From a virus: 22,977 nucleotides of DNA. The notes beneath the pieces are model-generated. The model did no database searches and was not told where the DNA came from. It worked only from the letters and a program-made list of their open reading frames with translations. Position numbers and translations under genes: made by a program. Location of the stretch: positions 1-22,977 of the IMG/VR virus record IMGVR_UViG_3300008113_005418, one strand, 5' to 3'. This document shows positions 2,299-18,400 of the stretch, one piece after another (within the stretch, counting starts at the first letter, position 1; each line of letters begins with the position of its first letter).

Positions 2299-2730
2299 TC
2301 ACTTATAGATGTAATTCACAGTGGTAGAATTTTCACGCAGTTCTCTAGCGCCGTTCTTCAAATGGAATCGTCGAGCCATTTCGGTCTTGGGACTCAGAGT
2401 CACGTAAGTACTGATGTCGGGAAATTCAGCTTGTATGCTGGTTTGTGCTTCTTGTATTAGATCACGCCCGGCTCCTGCCGCATAACTCCAAATAGTGTAA
2501 AATACCGCAGTTGTAGCACTCTCAACCAGACCAAACAAATCTTCTACAGCAGCAGGCACCTCAGTCAAAAACTTTACACAGGTCACTGCCAAAGTTCGAT
2601 CACCTTCTTTGAGCATGTAAATTCTTGAATTAGCATTGACTCGTTGGCTCACGGGAATTTCAGGACGAACTGGGTCATCCTGAATCAAGGTCTCAATGTC
2701 GTCGGTGATACTGGTTATGGTGTATAACAT
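2299..2730 (-). CDS. GNAT-like acetyltransferase fold protein, conserved in T4-like phages
   Basis: The product has 143 residues. The C-terminal half has a layout typical of a GNAT acetyltransferase: a central strand (AVFYTIWSY, about 94-102), a glycine-containing turn into a helix (AGAGRDLI, about 104-111), a strand (STYVTLSP) and the helix-turn MARRFHLKNGA near 120-130, which resembles the FY-x-x-x-GF acetyl-CoA-binding end of the fold. I recall similar proteins in marine T4-like phages, but the substrate is unknown. The gene is a single unit with a late-type octamer about 30 bases upstream and a strong terminator downstream. No good Shine-Dalgarno is visible. Confidence 0.72.
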   Translation of the reverse strand: MLYTITSITDDIETLIQDDPVRPEIPVSQRVNANSRIYMLKEGDRTLAVTCVKFLTEVPAAVEDLFGLVESATTAVFYTIWSYAAGAGRDLIQEAQTSIQAEFPDISTYVTLSPKTEMARRFHLKNGARELRENSTTVNYIYK

Positions 2731-13429: not shown

Positions 13430-14285
13430 AATTTTCAAGTATCTTCTGAACAAAAAAATTACTAGTGACAAGGTCAAAATGATGGTAATCTCTAGCATAG
13501 TCTAGATTTGACAACTGAAGTAATTGATTCTGTCTATAAAAATTATTTGATAAAAACCAAATATCAAAATTTACCTGTGTAAACACACTTCTAGATTCTT
13601 TTTTTACATGATCAGGCAACTGATTGAATTCAGTCAGTGTAGACGGAAAAGAGTCAGGCCAAGAAACATCTTTAATGTTGTTCCAACTTCTTGTTACGTG
13701 CTCAAAAATCTCGTTCACATCAGAATTTGGTATTATTCCATTGAATATGGTAGTGCCTGCATTGGATTTTTTTAAACTGATATAACAATTAATAAAATTT
13801 GTTATATTGTCAGATTCTGAATCGTATTTGTCAGATCTCACTCTTCTGTCTTCGTCGGGTAAGTTAGTGTCAGGCAACTCTCTACGATGACCATAAGACC
13901 ATAACACTACCATTTGTTTAGGCGCAACTTCTTTAATAATTTGCTGAGATCGACGACTAATCCAGTTATTACTGGCACCGTCCATGCTGACATTGATGCA
14001 TCGACGACCAGTTGCAGCAGACAGCACCTGCGGCCATGTAAAATTGTACGGGCTACCAACGCCCACAGTAAAACTGTCACCCACACACCATATGGAGTTT
14101 TTCAACTCACTTAAAGATTGAGGCCATTCCGCGTCTCTAAATCCTCGACTGTTATAGTTGTATTCAACATGATGCGGATATGATCGAAAGTGATCTTTGT
14201 TCAAACATTCTTGTAAACAATCTATACCTGAAAATTTCCATTTTTTATTTTTTCTTGATTGCAGAATCAAATCACCTAATATCAT
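13419..14285 (-). CDS. SGNH/GDSL-type hydrolase-like protein
   Basis: I choose ATG 14285, which overlaps the stop of the DUF2061 gene as ATGA; a TTG at 14300 would add five residues. The product has 288 residues. CVGDSFTVGVG (67-77) contains the GDS nucleophile block, DGASNN carries the block III G-x-x-N oxyanion residues, and RDYHHF (265-270) gives the C-terminal D-x-x-H. So the Ser/Asp/His set of an esterase or lipase-like SGNH enzyme looks complete. It is the last gene of the coupled 13.4-17.6 kb cassette and, like the opposing sulfotransferase gene, is AT-rich. It could remove acyl groups from a surface glycan. Confidence 0.75.
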   Translation of the reverse strand: MILGDLILQSRKNKKWKFSGIDCLQECLNKDHFRSYPHHVEYNYNSRGFRDAEWPQSLSELKNSIWCVGDSFTVGVGSPYNFTWPQVLSAATGRRCINVSMDGASNNWISRRSQQIIKEVAPKQMVVLWSYGHRRELPDTNLPDEDRRVRSDKYDSESDNITNFINCYISLKKSNAGTTIFNGIIPNSDVNEIFEHVTRSWNNIKDVSWPDSFPSTLTEFNQLPDHVKKESRSVFTQVNFDIWFLSNNFYRQNQLLQLSNLDYARDYHHFDLVTSNFFVQKILENFNG

Positions 14286-14482
14286 TGTTGACCCCAGCAA
14301 ATTTTGTTCCAGATGCGTTCGTGCGCATAATAAAGTATGGTATTGGTAACCATCTGTGCAAGCCCAATTACACCAGCCACGGCAAAATTACCGGTCAACA
14401 AATATGCAATCAAGAATGTGGCACCGGACCCAGTGATGCGCCAACTGATGGTTTTGACCAAGCTTCTGCGTGGTGAGTCCAT
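14282..14482 (-). CDS. DUF2061 family small membrane protein
   Basis: The product has 66 residues: a basic start (SPRRSLVKTISWRITGS), a hydrophobic segment FLIAYLLTG (about 23-31), a second one from AVAGVIGLAQMV, and the end TILYYAHERIWNKICWG. The K-[AT]-x-[ST]-WR-x-x-[AG]-[ST] start and YYxHERxW end match DUF2061 as I recall it. It would be an inner-membrane protein of unknown function. Its start overlaps the stop of the nucleotidylyltransferase gene as TAATG, and its stop overlaps the SGNH start, so it belongs to the coupled cassette. Confidence 0.82.
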   Translation of the reverse strand: MDSPRRSLVKTISWRITGSGATFLIAYLLTGNFAVAGVIGLAQMVTNTILYYAHERIWNKICWGQQ

Positions 14483-14892
14483 TACAGTTTGCCCGCAGCT
14501 CGTAACTCGGCACGTATTTGAGTGGCAGAAATTGAGTGAATTTCTTCGCCTAGATCATGCTGTGAGAATGTGTAGCCTACCCCGCGGCCGTAGCTGATGT
14601 CCACAATGTTGGGCACCTGCATGATGATATAATCCTCGTTGTAGACAAATCCTTCCGCAGCCAAAGCATCAACAATGTTGGCCTTGACAGTGTCTAGGTC
14701 AAACGGATTGTCTGTCTGTGCAGCAGTGCGCCCAGCGCCAGCATCCTGCCCCACAATGCCACCAACGTCACGAATCTGAATACACACTTGCCCAGTTTCC
14801 ATCAAGGCTTTTTTAAACAGTGCAGTGTGTCCTGGGTGCCAAGGTTGCCACCGGCCCAACATCTGTGTAGTGGGTCGTTTCCAATCAAACAT
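14482..14892 (-). CDS. Small nucleotidylyltransferase (HIGH superfamily)
   Basis: The product has 136 residues, near the minimal size for this fold. GRWQPWHPGHTALF (13-26) is the Rossmann HxGH signature and ISATQIRAEL (121-130) the second active-site motif. The WQPWHPGH version and ISATQIR resemble NMN adenylyltransferase (NadM) and ATP-sulfurylase-type families. In marine phages I recall such proteins being named cytidylyl- or adenylyltransferases. The middle region is shorter and has VGGIVGQDAGAGRT. It overlaps the end of the kinase gene by 8 bases, so the two enzymes are probably made together, possibly acting on the same substrate. Confidence 0.8.
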   Translation of the reverse strand: MFDWKRPTTQMLGRWQPWHPGHTALFKKALMETGQVCIQIRDVGGIVGQDAGAGRTAAQTDNPFDLDTVKANIVDALAAEGFVYNEDYIIMQVPNIVDISYGRGVGYTFSQHDLGEEIHSISATQIRAELRAAGKL

Positions 14893-15322
14893 TTGGTGTT
14901 TCCTTTTGATAATAATCTTTGAACACGCGGAACAGTTGTTCGTGTGTGTCAGTGAACCATTTGCTCACATGGTAGTCTACCCGGCTGGGTTTTTCAAACA
15001 TTTTGTTAGTATCTTCAAATCTACCTTCTGCGATAGTGTCCATCCATACCACATAGTCCGCAGCAAATCCTGCACGAGCAGCTTCGGTAGGACACACAAA
15101 GTCTGCCACGGCAATCCGTCCGGCCTTGATCACGCCGTCTGCAAGATATCTCATGCGATGTGCTTGGCGTTGACGACCTTCGGGGGTGAAGTCCCAGTCA
15201 TTGTATTCGGCTCGCACAGCATCAGCATTGAGCCATACTCCACCTACCAGGCGAGCAAAAGGCTCAGCCAAGGTGCTCTTGCCCGAACCAGGCAAGCCCA
15301 TGATTAAAATTCGTTTGGTCAT
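14885..15322 (-). CDS. APS-kinase-like P-loop kinase
   Basis: The product has 145 residues. MTKRILIMGLPGSGKST gives a perfect Walker A (GLPGSGKST, residues 9-17); VWLNADAVRAEYNDWDFT (29-46) and GRQRQAHRM (49-57) follow the D-x-D-x-V-R and R-x-x-x-x-x-R-[IM] pattern of adenylylsulfate kinases (CysC), and FVCP (75-78) matches their conserved FISP-like turn. A shorter or altered substrate is possible. I prefer the ATG at 15322, which overlaps the upstream stop as ATGA and has AGGA 7 bases upstream, over the ATG at 15328. Together with the nucleotidylyltransferase and two sulfotransferase-like proteins it suggests PAPS or nucleotide-activated metabolite chemistry. Confidence 0.82.
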   Translation of the reverse strand: MTKRILIMGLPGSGKSTLAEPFARLVGGVWLNADAVRAEYNDWDFTPEGRQRQAHRMRYLADGVIKAGRIAVADFVCPTEAARAGFAADYVVWMDTIAEGRFEDTNKMFEKPSRVDYHVSKWFTDTHEQLFRVFKDYYQKETPNV

Positions 15323-15939
15323 CGCCATTTCCTTGATGAATGCCGTGCTAGATCGTCTGTGGCATGATGATCTACAGGACTGAAATACTTACTGTTGGTA
15401 TCCACCTCCAGTATTTTTTCCACTGCAGGATTGCTCCAGTCAATAGGAAAGTCCAACTGTTGTGCCACATTTCTCAAATAGGCTGCACCATACAGGTGCA
15501 ACAGTTCATAACTGAGATAAGCATCTGGGGTCAACTGTTGATAGCTGGTCAAGGCCTGACTCAGGGTAGGCTGTCCCCGCACACGCTGTTCCTGCATGGC
15601 CACAATGTTGCGGTCTCTGCCCAGTAGAGCAATCTTTACTGCATGTCCCTGTTGCTGCACTGCGGACACAAATTGCTCAAGGTCAGGCACAGTGAGTGTG
15701 CCGTTGAGAGCGTAAGGAACTGAAATGCTGGTCACATACCAGTCGCTTTGACTCCAGTCAAACTTGGACAGTGTATCAGGTCGGACCCAGTAATCGGCAA
15801 ACGGCTCTTGGTCATGACCCTGCCAGTATTGATCCAGCAGGGCTTGCCAGCCCTGCACGTCAGGATGTAAAGCAAAGATCTTGCTCCACATGTGATTGCC
15901 CGAGCCCTGGGGCCCGGTTAAGATTAACACAGTTTTCAT
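15319..15939 (-). CDS. P-loop sulfotransferase-like protein
   Basis: The product has 206 residues. The start MKTVLILTGPQGSGNHMWSK has a strand followed by a P-loop (G-P-Q-G-S-G-N) and helix, a form I recall from sulfotransferase-like P-loop proteins of phages; the SGN in place of GK[ST] argues against a kinase. A later RDRNIVAMQEQRV segment near 120 could be the 3'-phosphate motif. The first start overlaps the stop of the oxygenase gene (ATGA) and the end overlaps the kinase gene, so it is tightly coupled. The acceptor and reaction are unknown. Confidence 0.65.
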   Translation of the reverse strand: MKTVLILTGPQGSGNHMWSKIFALHPDVQGWQALLDQYWQGHDQEPFADYWVRPDTLSKFDWSQSDWYVTSISVPYALNGTLTVPDLEQFVSAVQQQGHAVKIALLGRDRNIVAMQEQRVRGQPTLSQALTSYQQLTPDAYLSYELLHLYGAAYLRNVAQQLDFPIDWSNPAVEKILEVDTNSKYFSPVDHHATDDLARHSSRKWR

Positions 15940-16604
15940 ACAGTGTATGTTACAGTATTTCTGAGAGTTTGTAAAAACTTTTGGGTCTGTGCAGTTGCTA
16001 CACCAGTTATCTGCAGTGTGACTCGGGGATGACGACCTGCGTTGGCTGTAGAATGTGGCACGTTCTGCCAGTCAAATGTGGTCACGTCTCCGGCCCTCCA
16101 CTGATGATAGTGATAGTTGCCATACTCCCAGAACTGTCCTGGTTGCCAATCAGTTAGCTGTATCATGATTCGCATGACTCGATCAGGATCTTCTGGGCAC
16201 CACTTCTGCAGTTTGTCAATGTGCAAGTTCCAAACTTCACCGGGACGCTGCACATGAATACGATTCATGGTGTCCTCTAAAGCAAACAGGTCGCTGATCC
16301 GCTGCAGCACAGGAGGCATGTTCCAGTTCAGGTGGGTGATTGTGGCAGCAGGATCAACTCCCACACTTTCCAGATCATACGTTTCGGCTGCTTGATCTTC
16401 TGGCGGCGGCTCAACACCACGACCTTTGTAGCCACGAGTGGCCCAGGTGGCCGGTTCAGATTCTGATACAATTTGTTCCAGTTCGGATTGCCACATAGGT
16501 GCAAATCTTCCCAGGCCGATCACTGTGTCCCATCTAGGGTCTGTAACAACAGGATCAAAGTGATAGGCGCTGGTTTGTTTGGTTTGTTGCCAACTGCTTT
16601 GCAT
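15936..16604 (-). CDS. 2-oxoglutarate/Fe(II) oxygenase-like (Asp/Asn beta-hydroxylase type) protein
   Basis: I choose ATG 16604, one base after the stop of the TctC-like gene (TGATATG); an upstream TTG would add three residues. The product has 222 residues. HVQRPGEVWNLHIDK has the H-x-D iron motif (HID, 128-130); VPHSTANAGRHPRVTLQI supplies the distal His (about 184) and the Arg that would bind 2-oxoglutarate (about 194), in a double-stranded beta-helix-like C-terminus. GQFWEYGNYHYHQWRAGDV is a typical pre-motif loop. It would hydroxylate a protein or small molecule. In context it is second in a coupled modification cassette. Confidence 0.78.
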   Translation of the reverse strand: MQSSWQQTKQTSAYHFDPVVTDPRWDTVIGLGRFAPMWQSELEQIVSESEPATWATRGYKGRGVEPPPEDQAAETYDLESVGVDPAATITHLNWNMPPVLQRISDLFALEDTMNRIHVQRPGEVWNLHIDKLQKWCPEDPDRVMRIMIQLTDWQPGQFWEYGNYHYHQWRAGDVTTFDWQNVPHSTANAGRHPRVTLQITGVATAQTQKFLQTLRNTVTYTV

Positions 16605-16605
16605 A

Positions 16606-17574
16606 TCAATCAAACTTCATTTTTTGCACATACGGGAACCATTTTTTACGCAGTTCAGTCAAGTGCTTTCTCACACCTTCGGGAGTATGCTCTGCTGGCA
16701 CAGTAAACATCAAGTTCTCGTCAAAGAACTGTTTGGCTTCGGGGCTGCGAATAGCAGCAACAAACTGCCGGTTGTAGTGGTCCACTTGATTTCTAGGAGT
16801 TCCTGGCGGCATGGCAATGGCCCAGGCAGCATACACGTTGAGTCCAGGCACAGTTTCTTGCCACAGTGGAACATCGGGGATACGAGCCAGGCGCTGTTCA
16901 CCAGCCAGTGCAATGTATTTGACCTTGCCGCCTTTGACCAAGCCATAGGCCACTGCAGTGGGCAAGATACCAAATTCCACATGTCCCCCAGCCACGTCAT
17001 TCACCGCCTGTGCTGGACCTTTATACATCACGCTGCTGACCAGTTGGCGATTGCCTTGGCCTTTGTCCATGAGATATTCAAACACCAGTTTGTGTGCACC
17101 TGCGCCCAGACCAAATGTGATGGGTTGCTGGGTGTTTTTGATGCGAGCCAGCAACTCTTTCGGAGTGTTGGTAGGACTGTTGATGTTGGCCACCACAGCC
17201 AGTGGGCTCTTGGCAATAGTGGTCACAAACTCCATGTCAAATGGATTGAATTTGATCTGATCAGGATACCAGTGGTCAACGGCTGTGAACACACCCTGGT
17301 GACTGGTGACATACAAATTGTCGCCTCGGGGCTCAAGCTTGGTAAACCAGTTCAGGGCAACCACTTCATCTGCTCCTGGACGATTTAGAACCACATAGCT
17401 GGTGCCAGGATTTTGCTTTTCCACAATGGCTGCAACTGCTCTAAAGCTGACTTCGTTGCCAGATCCAGGACCAAAACCTGTGGTCACCGTCACAGTGCGT
17501 GGTGGTTCAAAAGCATGTGCTGCTGTGCCCAAAACAACAGCAGCAGCAGCAATAAGTAATTTTTTCATTGACAT
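16606..17574 (-). CDS. tctC: TctC/Bug-family periplasmic substrate-binding protein
   Basis: The product has 322 residues. A clear Sec signal peptide (MSMKKLLIAAAAVVLGTAAHA, cleavage after Ala21) is followed by a complete Bug (tripartite tricarboxylate transporter) binding protein. Landmarks are the start VTVTTGFGPGSGNEVSFR, the YKGPAQAVNDVAGGHVEFG region near 180-200, and LARIPDVPLWQETVPGL (about 230-246) followed by MPPGTPRNQ. Typical members bind citrate, C4-dicarboxylates or aromatic acids; the ligand here cannot be told. ATG 17574 has AAGGAG (17580-17585) with good spacing. No TctA/TctB membrane genes are visible, so it would depend on the host's. A bacterial-type transport gene in a phage operon is unusual. 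Confidence 0.92.
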   Translation of the reverse strand: MSMKKLLIAAAAVVLGTAAHAFEPPRTVTVTTGFGPGSGNEVSFRAVAAIVEKQNPGTSYVVLNRPGADEVVALNWFTKLEPRGDNLYVTSHQGVFTAVDHWYPDQIKFNPFDMEFVTTIAKSPLAVVANINSPTNTPKELLARIKNTQQPITFGLGAGAHKLVFEYLMDKGQGNRQLVSSVMYKGPAQAVNDVAGGHVEFGILPTAVAYGLVKGGKVKYIALAGEQRLARIPDVPLWQETVPGLNVYAAWAIAMPPGTPRNQVDHYNRQFVAAIRSPEAKQFFDENLMFTVPAEHTPEGVRKHLTELRKKWFPYVQKMKFD

Positions 17575-17597: not shown

Positions 17598-17649
17598 GAA
17601 AAACAAGGCACAAGTAAATTTTTTTGGTGCTTTGTAAAAATTTCAACTT

Positions 17650-17657
17650 TATTTATA
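17650..17657 (-). promoter_or_regulatory. Exact T4 late-promoter octamer TATAAATA for the tctC cassette
   Basis: The minus strand has TATAAATA, identical to the T4 late consensus. It would start transcription about 70 bases before the tctC ATG at 17574. It lies downstream of the plus-strand sigma70 promoter at 17568-17597, so the two promoters face each other. A weaker sigma70-like pair (TTTACT-17-TATACT) is also present on minus in this gap. Confidence 0.6.
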
Positions 17658-17665
17658 AAATTTCT

Positions 17666-18400
17666 ATGAATACCAAAATTTTTGACCTAATCACAAAAAA
17701 TTTACACCAGGCTTTTGCCCTGGCCAAGTATGACACAATACGCAGTGCTATCAGTCCGGATACTTGTGTAGATCAGTTGCCCTGGACACCGGCCCGCTAT
17801 CGCAAGTTCAAAGATGCTGTGACTGCTGAATTGCAACTGGATTCAGATTATGTGGGCACATTAAAAGACATCGTGGCTGATTTAAGCGAGCGATATACTC
17901 ACAGATTTTTTGCTGAAATCTGGAAACCCAGAACCAATGAATACGAATACACAGGCTGGCAACTGGTGGAAGAAATCAACAAACTGAACCCCGAATCTGT
18001 GTTGGACGTGGGCTGCGGATACCATCCGTTCAAGGGTCGCATTCAAAACATTGTGGGCATTGATCCCTACAATAACTTGGCCGACTATGAAGTTGACATC
18101 CTGGACTATCGGGTCCGGCCGGCCAGCTATGATGTGATCATTGCCCTGGGATCTATCAACTTCAACAGCCAGGATGAAATTGAACAACGCTTTGCTCACT
18201 GTGTGAGTTTGTTAAAAACAGGTGGAAAATTTTATTTGCGAGCCAATCCAGGTGTGCCGCACAAAGCCGGTCCGTATGTGGACATTTTTCCTTGGACATT
18301 CGAAATAGTCAATGAGTTTGCAGAACGGTACAATCTGCATCTTGACACATTCAAGCGTGATGCCAACGAACGCCTGTACTTTGTTTACACTAGACTTTGA
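17666..18400 (+). CDS. SAM-dependent class I methyltransferase
   Basis: The product has 244 residues from ATG 17666 (MNTKIFDLITKN); a longer frame from 17624 begins in the AT-rich leader and is less likely. After an alpha-helical N-terminal part, VLDVGCGYHPF (112-122) is motif I, NIVGIDPYNNLADYE (128-142) the acidic strand 2 end, YDVIIALGSINF the motif IV region and LLKTGGKFYLRANPG the motif post-III. So it should methylate using SAM; the target (lipid, small molecule or nucleic acid) is unknown. It lies on plus, with a sigma70 promoter upstream, and its 3' end overlaps the SGNH-like gene by 16 bases. Confidence 0.85.
   Translation: MNTKIFDLITKNLHQAFALAKYDTIRSAISPDTCVDQLPWTPARYRKFKDAVTAELQLDSDYVGTLKDIVADLSERYTHRFFAEIWKPRTNEYEYTGWQLVEEINKLNPESVLDVGCGYHPFKGRIQNIVGIDPYNNLADYEVDILDYRVRPASYDVIIALGSINFNSQDEIEQRFAHCVSLLKTGGKFYLRANPGVPHKAGPYVDIFPWTFEIVNEFAERYNLHLDTFKRDANERLYFVYTRL

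What the first reader, a model, noticed from the sequence alone, without database searches (positions are those of the whole stretch)
16606..17574. Bug/TctC substrate-binding protein encoded by a phage without transporter membrane genes
A complete, signal-peptide-bearing Bug-family protein sits in a phage operon. No tctA or tctB is in view. It could raise uptake of a carboxylate by the host's own transporter, act as a decoy, or be secreted. The family's abundance in Burkholderiales hints at the host.
Basis: partly seen in the sequence, partly recalled or inferred. Interest (0 to 1): 0.8.

Follow-up and report, generated by a model that had tools for sequence, protein, structure and literature searches.

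The report
Phage-borne nutrient-binding protein (TctC/Bug)
Many large phages carry their own version of a bacterial nutrient-catching protein inside a conserved gene block, and a few relatives also carry the matching membrane pump, which suggests that these viruses may change what an infected cell takes up.

Summary
It is a genuine TctC/Bug solute-binding protein: Pfam TctC 1.5e-27, and a confident model (pLDDT 91.9) that matches BugE and AdpC at Z about 37. The contig is phage, not host.

It is not a stray host gene. With the window, 37 viral contigs carry this subfamily, some 280-374 kb long. The distinct sequences form one phage clade, and the pairs with usable dS show purifying selection. 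All 33 distinct sequences share a changed signature (Glu where 60 of 61 cellular rows have Asp). A methyltransferase gene lies within 2 kb in 30 of 30 later-found loci, and a sulfotransferase-like gene is next to it in most.

'No membrane genes' is true of the window and of most relatives, not of all: two relatives (142 and 158 kb) also encode TctA and TctB.

Best reading: an exported binding protein feeding a small, probably acidic, compound to a TctA/TctB pair of the host or phage. Ligand, transport and host are not shown. Database entries already name phage Bug proteins, but I found no paper describing the system.

The parts
16606..17574 (-). TctC/Bug solute-binding protein, 322 aa, phage-specific subfamily
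   Evidence: Pfam PF03401 1.5e-27; model pLDDT 91.9; Z 37.0 to BugE 2dvz
17512..17574 (-). coding stretch of the probable Sec signal peptide (residues 1-21, ending A-H-A)
   Evidence: by inspection of the translation; N-terminal helix 3-19 in the model; no predictor run
17650..17657 (-). TATAAATA, T4-type late-promoter core (motif recalled), between the two divergent genes
   Evidence: only exact copy in the window; 25 of 100 shuffles also hold at least one, so weak
17666..18400 (+). divergent methyltransferase-like gene, partner of TctC (start taken at the ATG inside the listed ORF 17624-18400)
   Evidence: weak Pfam methyltransferase matches, below cut-offs; homologue within 2 kb of TctC in 30 of 30 loci
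15936..16613 (-). 2-oxoglutarate-oxygenase-like protein, 225 aa, overlapping the end of the Bug gene by 8 bases
   Evidence: no family match; H-x-D (H128, D130) invariant in 15 of 15 aligned homologues; assignment is by motif, recalled; the distal His and Arg were not invariant in that alignment
15319..15939 (-). sulfotransferase-like P-loop protein, 206 aa
   Evidence: no family match; assignment by motif only, recalled; homologue in 6 of 6 contigs
14885..15328 (-). small kinase, APS-kinase/AAA_33-like
   Evidence: Pfam APS_kinase 31.7 bits against cut-off 21.1; phrog_10255 5.2e-33; NCBIfam APS kinase models below cut-off
14482..14892 (-). nucleotidyltransferase-like protein (second half of phrog_10255; fused to the kinase in G002 and G006)
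   Evidence: phrog_10255 1.8e-20; fused ORFs seen
14282..14482 (-). DUF2061 small membrane protein
   Evidence: Pfam PF09834 1.3e-22

Best explanation
The gene encodes an exported periplasmic solute-binding protein of the TctC/Bug family, in a subfamily that has evolved inside large phages. During infection of a Gram-negative host (perhaps of Burkholderiales) it captures a small, probably acidic, compound and hands it to a TctA/TctB membrane pair, so raising or redirecting uptake. In most of these phages the pair would have to be the host's; two relatives carry their own. The compound is then used with the help of the co-conserved methyltransferase-like, sulfotransferase-like and oxygenase-like genes. 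Shown by computation: family, fold, phage location, conservation, purifying selection, gene neighbourhood, and TctAB on two relatives' contigs. Inferred: export, transport, use of the host's TctAB, acidic ligand, timing, host, and the link to the neighbouring enzymes.
For: Profile match and Bug fold. 37 viral contigs with the subfamily (window), one clade, dN/dS 0.11 for window against L002. Conserved block: methyltransferase within 2 kb in 30 of 30 loci. TctA and TctB on the same contig in G002 and G782. In bacteria many orphan Bug proteins share a few TctAB pairs (PMC5812351, passages and section 13 read). Analogy: cyanophages carry the phosphate-binding protein pstS in nine of 16 genomes (PMC3037559, passages read).
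Against: No ligand, uptake or expression data. The signature loop and aligned ligand side chains differ from characterised Bugs, so the ligand may not be a carboxylate at all. TctA was found on only 2 of 37 contigs of the subfamily (most of the 37 tested only by pattern scans, many are fragments). The tight tie to a methyltransferase and a sulfotransferase-like gene is not explained by plain nutrient uptake. No membrane partner is in the window.
Confidence: 0.5

Rival explanations
1. Binding without transport: the protein is a periplasmic sink or decoy, or it engages a host sensor that normally reads a TctC protein, and so silences a host response or blocks the host's own pump.
For: No TctA detected on 35 of the 37 contigs (mostly pattern scans); none in the 209.5-kb G006 by profile. 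The binding loop is changed in all 33 distinct sequences. A citrate TctC system with an adjacent two-component system is described for Bordetella (PMC5812351, passages).
Against: Two relatives encode TctA and TctB, and two further phages have TctABC with other TctC types, which points to transport. No sensor gene is in the block.
Confidence: 0.2
2. The fold has been reused for something unrelated to solute uptake, such as a virion part, a lysis helper or a carrier for the neighbouring modifying enzymes.
For: Constant neighbours are enzymes, not transport genes; in the window the gene lies between tail-fibre and lysis genes; the pocket signature is changed.
Against: The model is close to ligand-bound Bugs (rmsd 1.9 to 2dvz and 5oei) and further from open ones (3.5 to 8hk9 and 7ndr), and positions lining the cleft are the most conserved, as expected for a working binding site. 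Signal peptide is kept.
Confidence: 0.2
3. A passenger gene or a host fragment mistaken for phage, without a role for the phage.
For: Bug genes are abundant in bacteria: 168 of 399 genomes of the sampled order had a match.
Against: Phage genes around it; 64-94% identity among the first phage set against at most 35% to the cellular matches listed; one phage clade; dN/dS 0.11; same block in 6 of 6 contigs.
Confidence: 0.03

Closest known systems
TctC/Bug solute-binding proteins of tripartite tricarboxylate transporters (BugE 2dvz, AdpC 5oei, TphC 7nds, TBP 8hka)
   Same: Profile, size, two-domain fold (Z 35-37), probable signal peptide
   Different: Only 21-25% identical; signature Asp is Glu, second Gly is Ser or Ala, polar ligand side chains not kept; gene neighbours are phage enzymes
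Cyanophage PstS (phosphate-binding protein carried by T4-like cyanophages)
   Same: A solute-binding protein carried by large T4-like phages, listed there as the only subunit of the transporter (PMC3037559, passages)
   Different: Different transporter class (TTT, not ABC) and probably different ligand and host; some relatives here carry the membrane subunits too; long-lived phage subfamily in a fixed gene block
tctA domain on SUP05 viral contigs
   Same: A TTT membrane gene named as a possible viral metabolic gene (PMC4164917, passages)
   Different: Domain hit only; no TctC or TctB named in the passages read; different host group
UniProt phage proteins named PBP2_Bug_TTT or Bordetella uptake protein (uncultured Caudovirales phage)
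   Same: Nearest model A0A6J5T247, 45% identical, TM-score 0.89; five such entries listed
   Different: Automatic names only; no neighbourhood, subfamily or partner gene described that I could find

Membership tests
TctC/Bug solute-binding proteins (PF03401) | Match to the family profile over its curated cut-off | tested here: met
   97.2 bits, cut-off 27, profile positions 3-246 of 274
TctC/Bug solute-binding proteins (PF03401) | Two-domain type II binding-protein fold as in BugD, BugE, AdpC | tested here: met
   Predicted model pLDDT 91.9; Z 37.0, rmsd 1.9, 294 residues to 2dvz; Bug/TctC chains fill ranks 1-11, then Z 16.6
TctC/Bug solute-binding proteins (PF03401) | Export signal | tested here: inconclusive
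   Clear by inspection in the window and most relatives; no predictor or experiment
TctC/Bug solute-binding proteins (PF03401) | Signature loop P-F-X-A-G-G-X-X-D; described as almost ubiquitous, so typical rather than defining | tested here: not met
   Window reads G-F-G-P-G-S-G-N-E; Glu at position 41 in 33 of 33 distinct phage sequences, Asp in 60 of 61 cellular rows. It is therefore filed as a divergent subfamily, by profile and fold
TctC/Bug solute-binding proteins (PF03401) | Binds an organic acid | not testable with these tools
   Needs purified protein
Tripartite tricarboxylate transporter (TctABC) | TctA and TctB encoded by the same replicon | tested here: inconclusive
   Not in the window by inspection of its ORFs over 400 aa; on G002 and G782 yes; on G006 no; most other relatives are fragments
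Phage auxiliary metabolic gene of the PstS kind | Carried by phages, conserved, probably functional | tested here: met
   37 viral contigs; dN/dS 0.11; phage neighbours
Phage auxiliary metabolic gene of the PstS kind | Shown to change metabolism of infected cells | not testable with these tools
   No isolate or expression data

The most novel reading that the evidence does not exclude
Large phages run a dedicated import-and-modify pathway: a phage-evolved TctC with a new ligand, in some phages joined by their own TctA and TctB and even an outer-membrane porin, brings in a compound that the co-conserved methyltransferase-like, sulfotransferase-like and oxygenase-like enzymes turn into something the phage needs, such as a modification of DNA, virion or cell surface. 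That would be a virus-owned route from outside the cell to a virus-owned enzyme set.
Probability: 0.2. Interest if true: 0.85.

Novelty: new variant of a known kind. Interest (0 to 1): 0.6.

Why it matters
The phage solute-binding protein that I know from the papers read is PstS, for phosphate. Here a different transporter class is carried by many large phages as a conserved, phage-evolved subfamily, and in a few phages with the whole transporter. If it works, phages steer uptake of some organic compound in infected bacteria, and the fixed gene block gives a handle on otherwise unassigned phage methyltransferase-like, sulfotransferase-like and oxygenase-like genes. The G-N-E signature makes the subfamily easy to follow in metagenomes.

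Tried and rejected
Host chromosome fragment: rejected (phage genes around it, phage-only clade). Spurious ORF: rejected (profile, fold, dN/dS). The first structure prediction, from 7 sequences, failed (pLDDT 46.2); a 31-sequence alignment solved it.

NAD-precursor idea (Bug27 and Bug69 bind quinolinate, PMC11452294, passages; the window has a nucleotidyltransferase): not pursued, no positive evidence. Sulfur theme (APS-kinase-like gene, DUF2061, sulfotransferase-like genes): suggestive only; NCBIfam APS kinase models lie far below cut-off and the sulfotransferase-like proteins match no family.

L040-L043 carry TctA at the contig edge in 59-67% GC DNA, have no TctC or TctB, look like prophage or host edges and were not counted as phage TctA. 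The L051 group (L051-L054, L058) has one identical TctA and was treated as one phage group. Unannotated gut records and Salmonella or Escherichia records matching TctC or TctA in the phages collection were not used as evidence. The first tree had long branches meeting; later trees left rows out: 13 of 73; L184, L006, L009, L065, the three divergent phage paralogues and 6 more cellular rows. CRISPR spacer matching was not possible with the scans left.

Literature: ten searches. Titles and abstract starts listed there showed no paper on phage TctC or a phage TctABC; the last, for 'Bordetella uptake' with phage and viral, returned 0 papers. Only open-licence PubMed Central papers are covered. PMC6848030 (passages) treats TctC and phages separately. 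Pages listed but not opened were not read.

Full report
OBSERVATION. The ORF lies at 16606-17574 on the minus strand, 322 aa. The plus strand of that stretch is not open. Pfam TctC matches at 1.5e-27, 97.2 bits against a cut-off of 27. PHROGs and NCBIfam give no match. The N-terminus reads as a Sec signal peptide by inspection.

PHAGE OR HOST. Around it lie an M15 endolysin (phrog_894 1.3e-43), a Clp-type phage protease (phrog_4871), a DnaJ-like protein and a tail-fibre match. The record is a virus record of 22,977 bases, probably a fragment. Two longer relatives, G002 and G006, carry a DNA polymerase of phrog_262, with a clamp loader (G002) or ribonucleotide reductase and DnaB-like helicase (G006). 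'T4-like' is my reading of that set.

RELATIVES. A scan with the window protein gave 4 viral contigs, and one with an alignment gave 6, two of them new: 93% identity (L002), then 64-70%. The TctC genes of L007 and L008 are identical. A scan with the relative on contig G782 gave 30 contigs (G782 itself at 100%, the rest 43-65% to that query), among them contigs of 374, 337, 320, 280, 158 and 127 kb. With the window this makes 37 contigs. The one scan of cellular genome contigs gave a single 32% partial match. Sampled cellular genomes gave 41 of 369 (class of G007) and 168 of 399 (order of G114) with a match; listed identities reach 35%. In both searches at most 5 or 6 candidates per genome were scored, so a closer relative could have been missed.

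PHYLOGENY AND SELECTION. Six phage proteins form one clade among 73 rows (bootstrap 98, SH-aLRT 93), and again in 60 rows after long branches were dropped (SH-aLRT 100). With 32 phage and 55 cellular rows the phage clade has SH-aLRT 100 and a stem of 2.4 changes per column, and it falls beside Bugs of the sampled order with modest support. dN/dS for window against L002 is 0.11 at dS 0.38; for other pairs dS is above 1.7 or saturated, and where a ratio could be computed it was 0.07-0.16.

FOLD AND POCKET. A model from 31 sequences has pLDDT 91.9. Bug/TctC structures fill the top eleven rows of the structural comparison, Z 27.8-37.0; the next row has Z 16.6. The signature loop is changed: position 41 is Glu in 33 of 33 distinct phage sequences and Asp in 60 of 61 cellular rows; position 38 is Ser (27) or Ala (6) in phage and Gly in 54 of 61 cellular rows; N40, F44 and H161 are fixed in phage (L007 and the duplicates L169, L170 and L180 dropped; L006, L009 and L065 left out of the cellular set). 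On sequence alignments, the ligand side chains of TphC (PMC8556258, passages read) are not kept at the aligned positions; loop alignment there is uncertain. So the ligand probably differs from known Bug ligands, and I cannot name it.

GENE BLOCK. With window genes as queries, homologues of the methyltransferase-like, Bug, oxygenase-like, sulfotransferase-like, kinase and nucleotidyltransferase genes were found near TctC in 6 of 6 contigs searched, DUF2061 in 4 of 6 (L007 and G006 in that list are the same or nearly the same phage). In the 30 loci a methyltransferase homologue lies within 2 kb of TctC in 30 of 30. A second sulfotransferase-like gene (208 aa type) is directly downstream in 24 of 30, upstream within 1.6 kb in 4, and not found in 2 (L176, and L184, where the contig ends). 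An oxygenase homologue was found in 14 of 30; several loci end early. In the window the Bug and oxygenase genes overlap by 8 bases, so no 208-aa type gene stands between them. The conserved block argues against a random acquisition.

MEMBRANE GENES. G002 (142 kb, 49 tRNA genes) encodes TctA 1.1e-152 and TctB 1.4e-16, between tRNA genes and genes that look like homing endonucleases, at GC 0.37 and 0.30 in a phage of 0.40. It also has a second, divergent TctC. Its TctA is up to 68% identical to cellular TctA, present in 128 of 300 genomes of the sampled order, and nests among them, so it was probably taken from such a host. That this order is Burkholderiales is my inference from Bug abundance. 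Scans for phage TctA found further phage contigs; a group with L047, L050 and L057 forms its own branch. Both copies of the duplicated TctA motif are present in 9 of 9 phage TctA proteins examined. Of 20 TctA contigs examined by profile, 8 have a TctC and 6 a TctB over the cut-offs (the 20 include L040-L043, which look like prophage or host edges). A, B and C together are on G782, G789 and G791, and on G002. In G782 the TctC stands in the same kind of gene block as in the window, with the G-N-E signature; the TctC proteins of G789 and G791 are of other types. Neighbours with PHROG matches supported phage context for L045, L047, L050, L051, L056 and, through a phage-type glycosyltransferase, L048; that of L057 rests on its IMG/VR class and similar gene order. 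G006 (209.5 kb) has three TctC genes and no TctA or TctB. Of the 37 contigs of the subfamily, TctA was found on 2; the other long ones, apart from G006, were tested only by pattern scans.

MECHANISM. The simplest reading is the orphan-Bug model of bacteria, where many binding proteins share a few TctAB pairs (PMC5812351, passages and section 13; PMC11452294, passages), applied by a phage, as with cyanophage PstS (PMC3037559, passages). A single TATAAATA stands upstream of the gene on its strand, compatible with late expression, but 25 of 100 shuffled windows hold such a site somewhere. Transport, ligand and timing are inference. The fixed enzyme neighbours are the strongest reason to doubt plain nutrient uptake, and they lead to the bolder import-and-modify reading.

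NOVELTY. Five phage entries in the structure library of viral proteins already bear Bug names, the nearest 45% identical, so the occurrence is in databases. Within the papers searched the only related mention I saw was a tctA domain hit on SUP05 viral contigs (PMC4164917, passages; repeated in PMC6359870, passages). I rate it a new variant of a known kind.

Noticed in passing
L021:2041-2991 (G006 202041-202991); L152:336-1293 (G782): A TRAP-type solute-binding protein (Pfam DctP 1.2e-48) starts at what would be the mature protein, with no signal peptide and stops upstream in frame; in G782 a similar gene is split into two ORFs. A binding protein that stays in the cytoplasm would be odd.
   Followed up: partly
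L021:5454-6335 (G006) and L057:3754-4932: Phage contigs carry outer-membrane porin genes (Pfam Porin_4 5.2e-28 and 1.7e-32), one of them about 2.7 kb from TctB and TctA.
   Followed up: partly
L029:2204-3385, L020/L021 around G006 197952-200400 and 204226-205365, L051:9539-10678, L150, L151, L152: A protein of about 390 aa with an S-G-G-x-D-S (PP-loop-like) motif and no Pfam match lies beside the divergent TctC genes of G002, G006, G782, the L051 group, G789 and G791, but not in the window block.
   Followed up: partly
L050:5531-7108 and L048:3020-4546: Tryptophan-halogenase genes (Pfam 1.4e-84 and 1.1e-85) directly upstream of TctB-TctA and of TctA in two phages.
   Followed up: no
L045, L048, L055 upstream of TctA: Short frames of 62-71 aa match only the first third of the TctB profile (below cut-off), as if TctB were shortened in some phages.
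   Followed up: no
window 14482-15328: Kinase and nucleotidyltransferase are two overlapping ORFs in the window but one fused ORF in G002 and G006.
   Followed up: no
window 2302-2730, minus strand: Small protein matches the C-terminal domain of malonyl-CoA decarboxylase (Pfam MCD 7.1e-7), possibly an acetyltransferase-like fold.
   Followed up: no
G002 80000-126000 (L027, L028, L029): 49 tRNA genes by ARAGORN, one with an odd four-base anticodon call.
   Followed up: no
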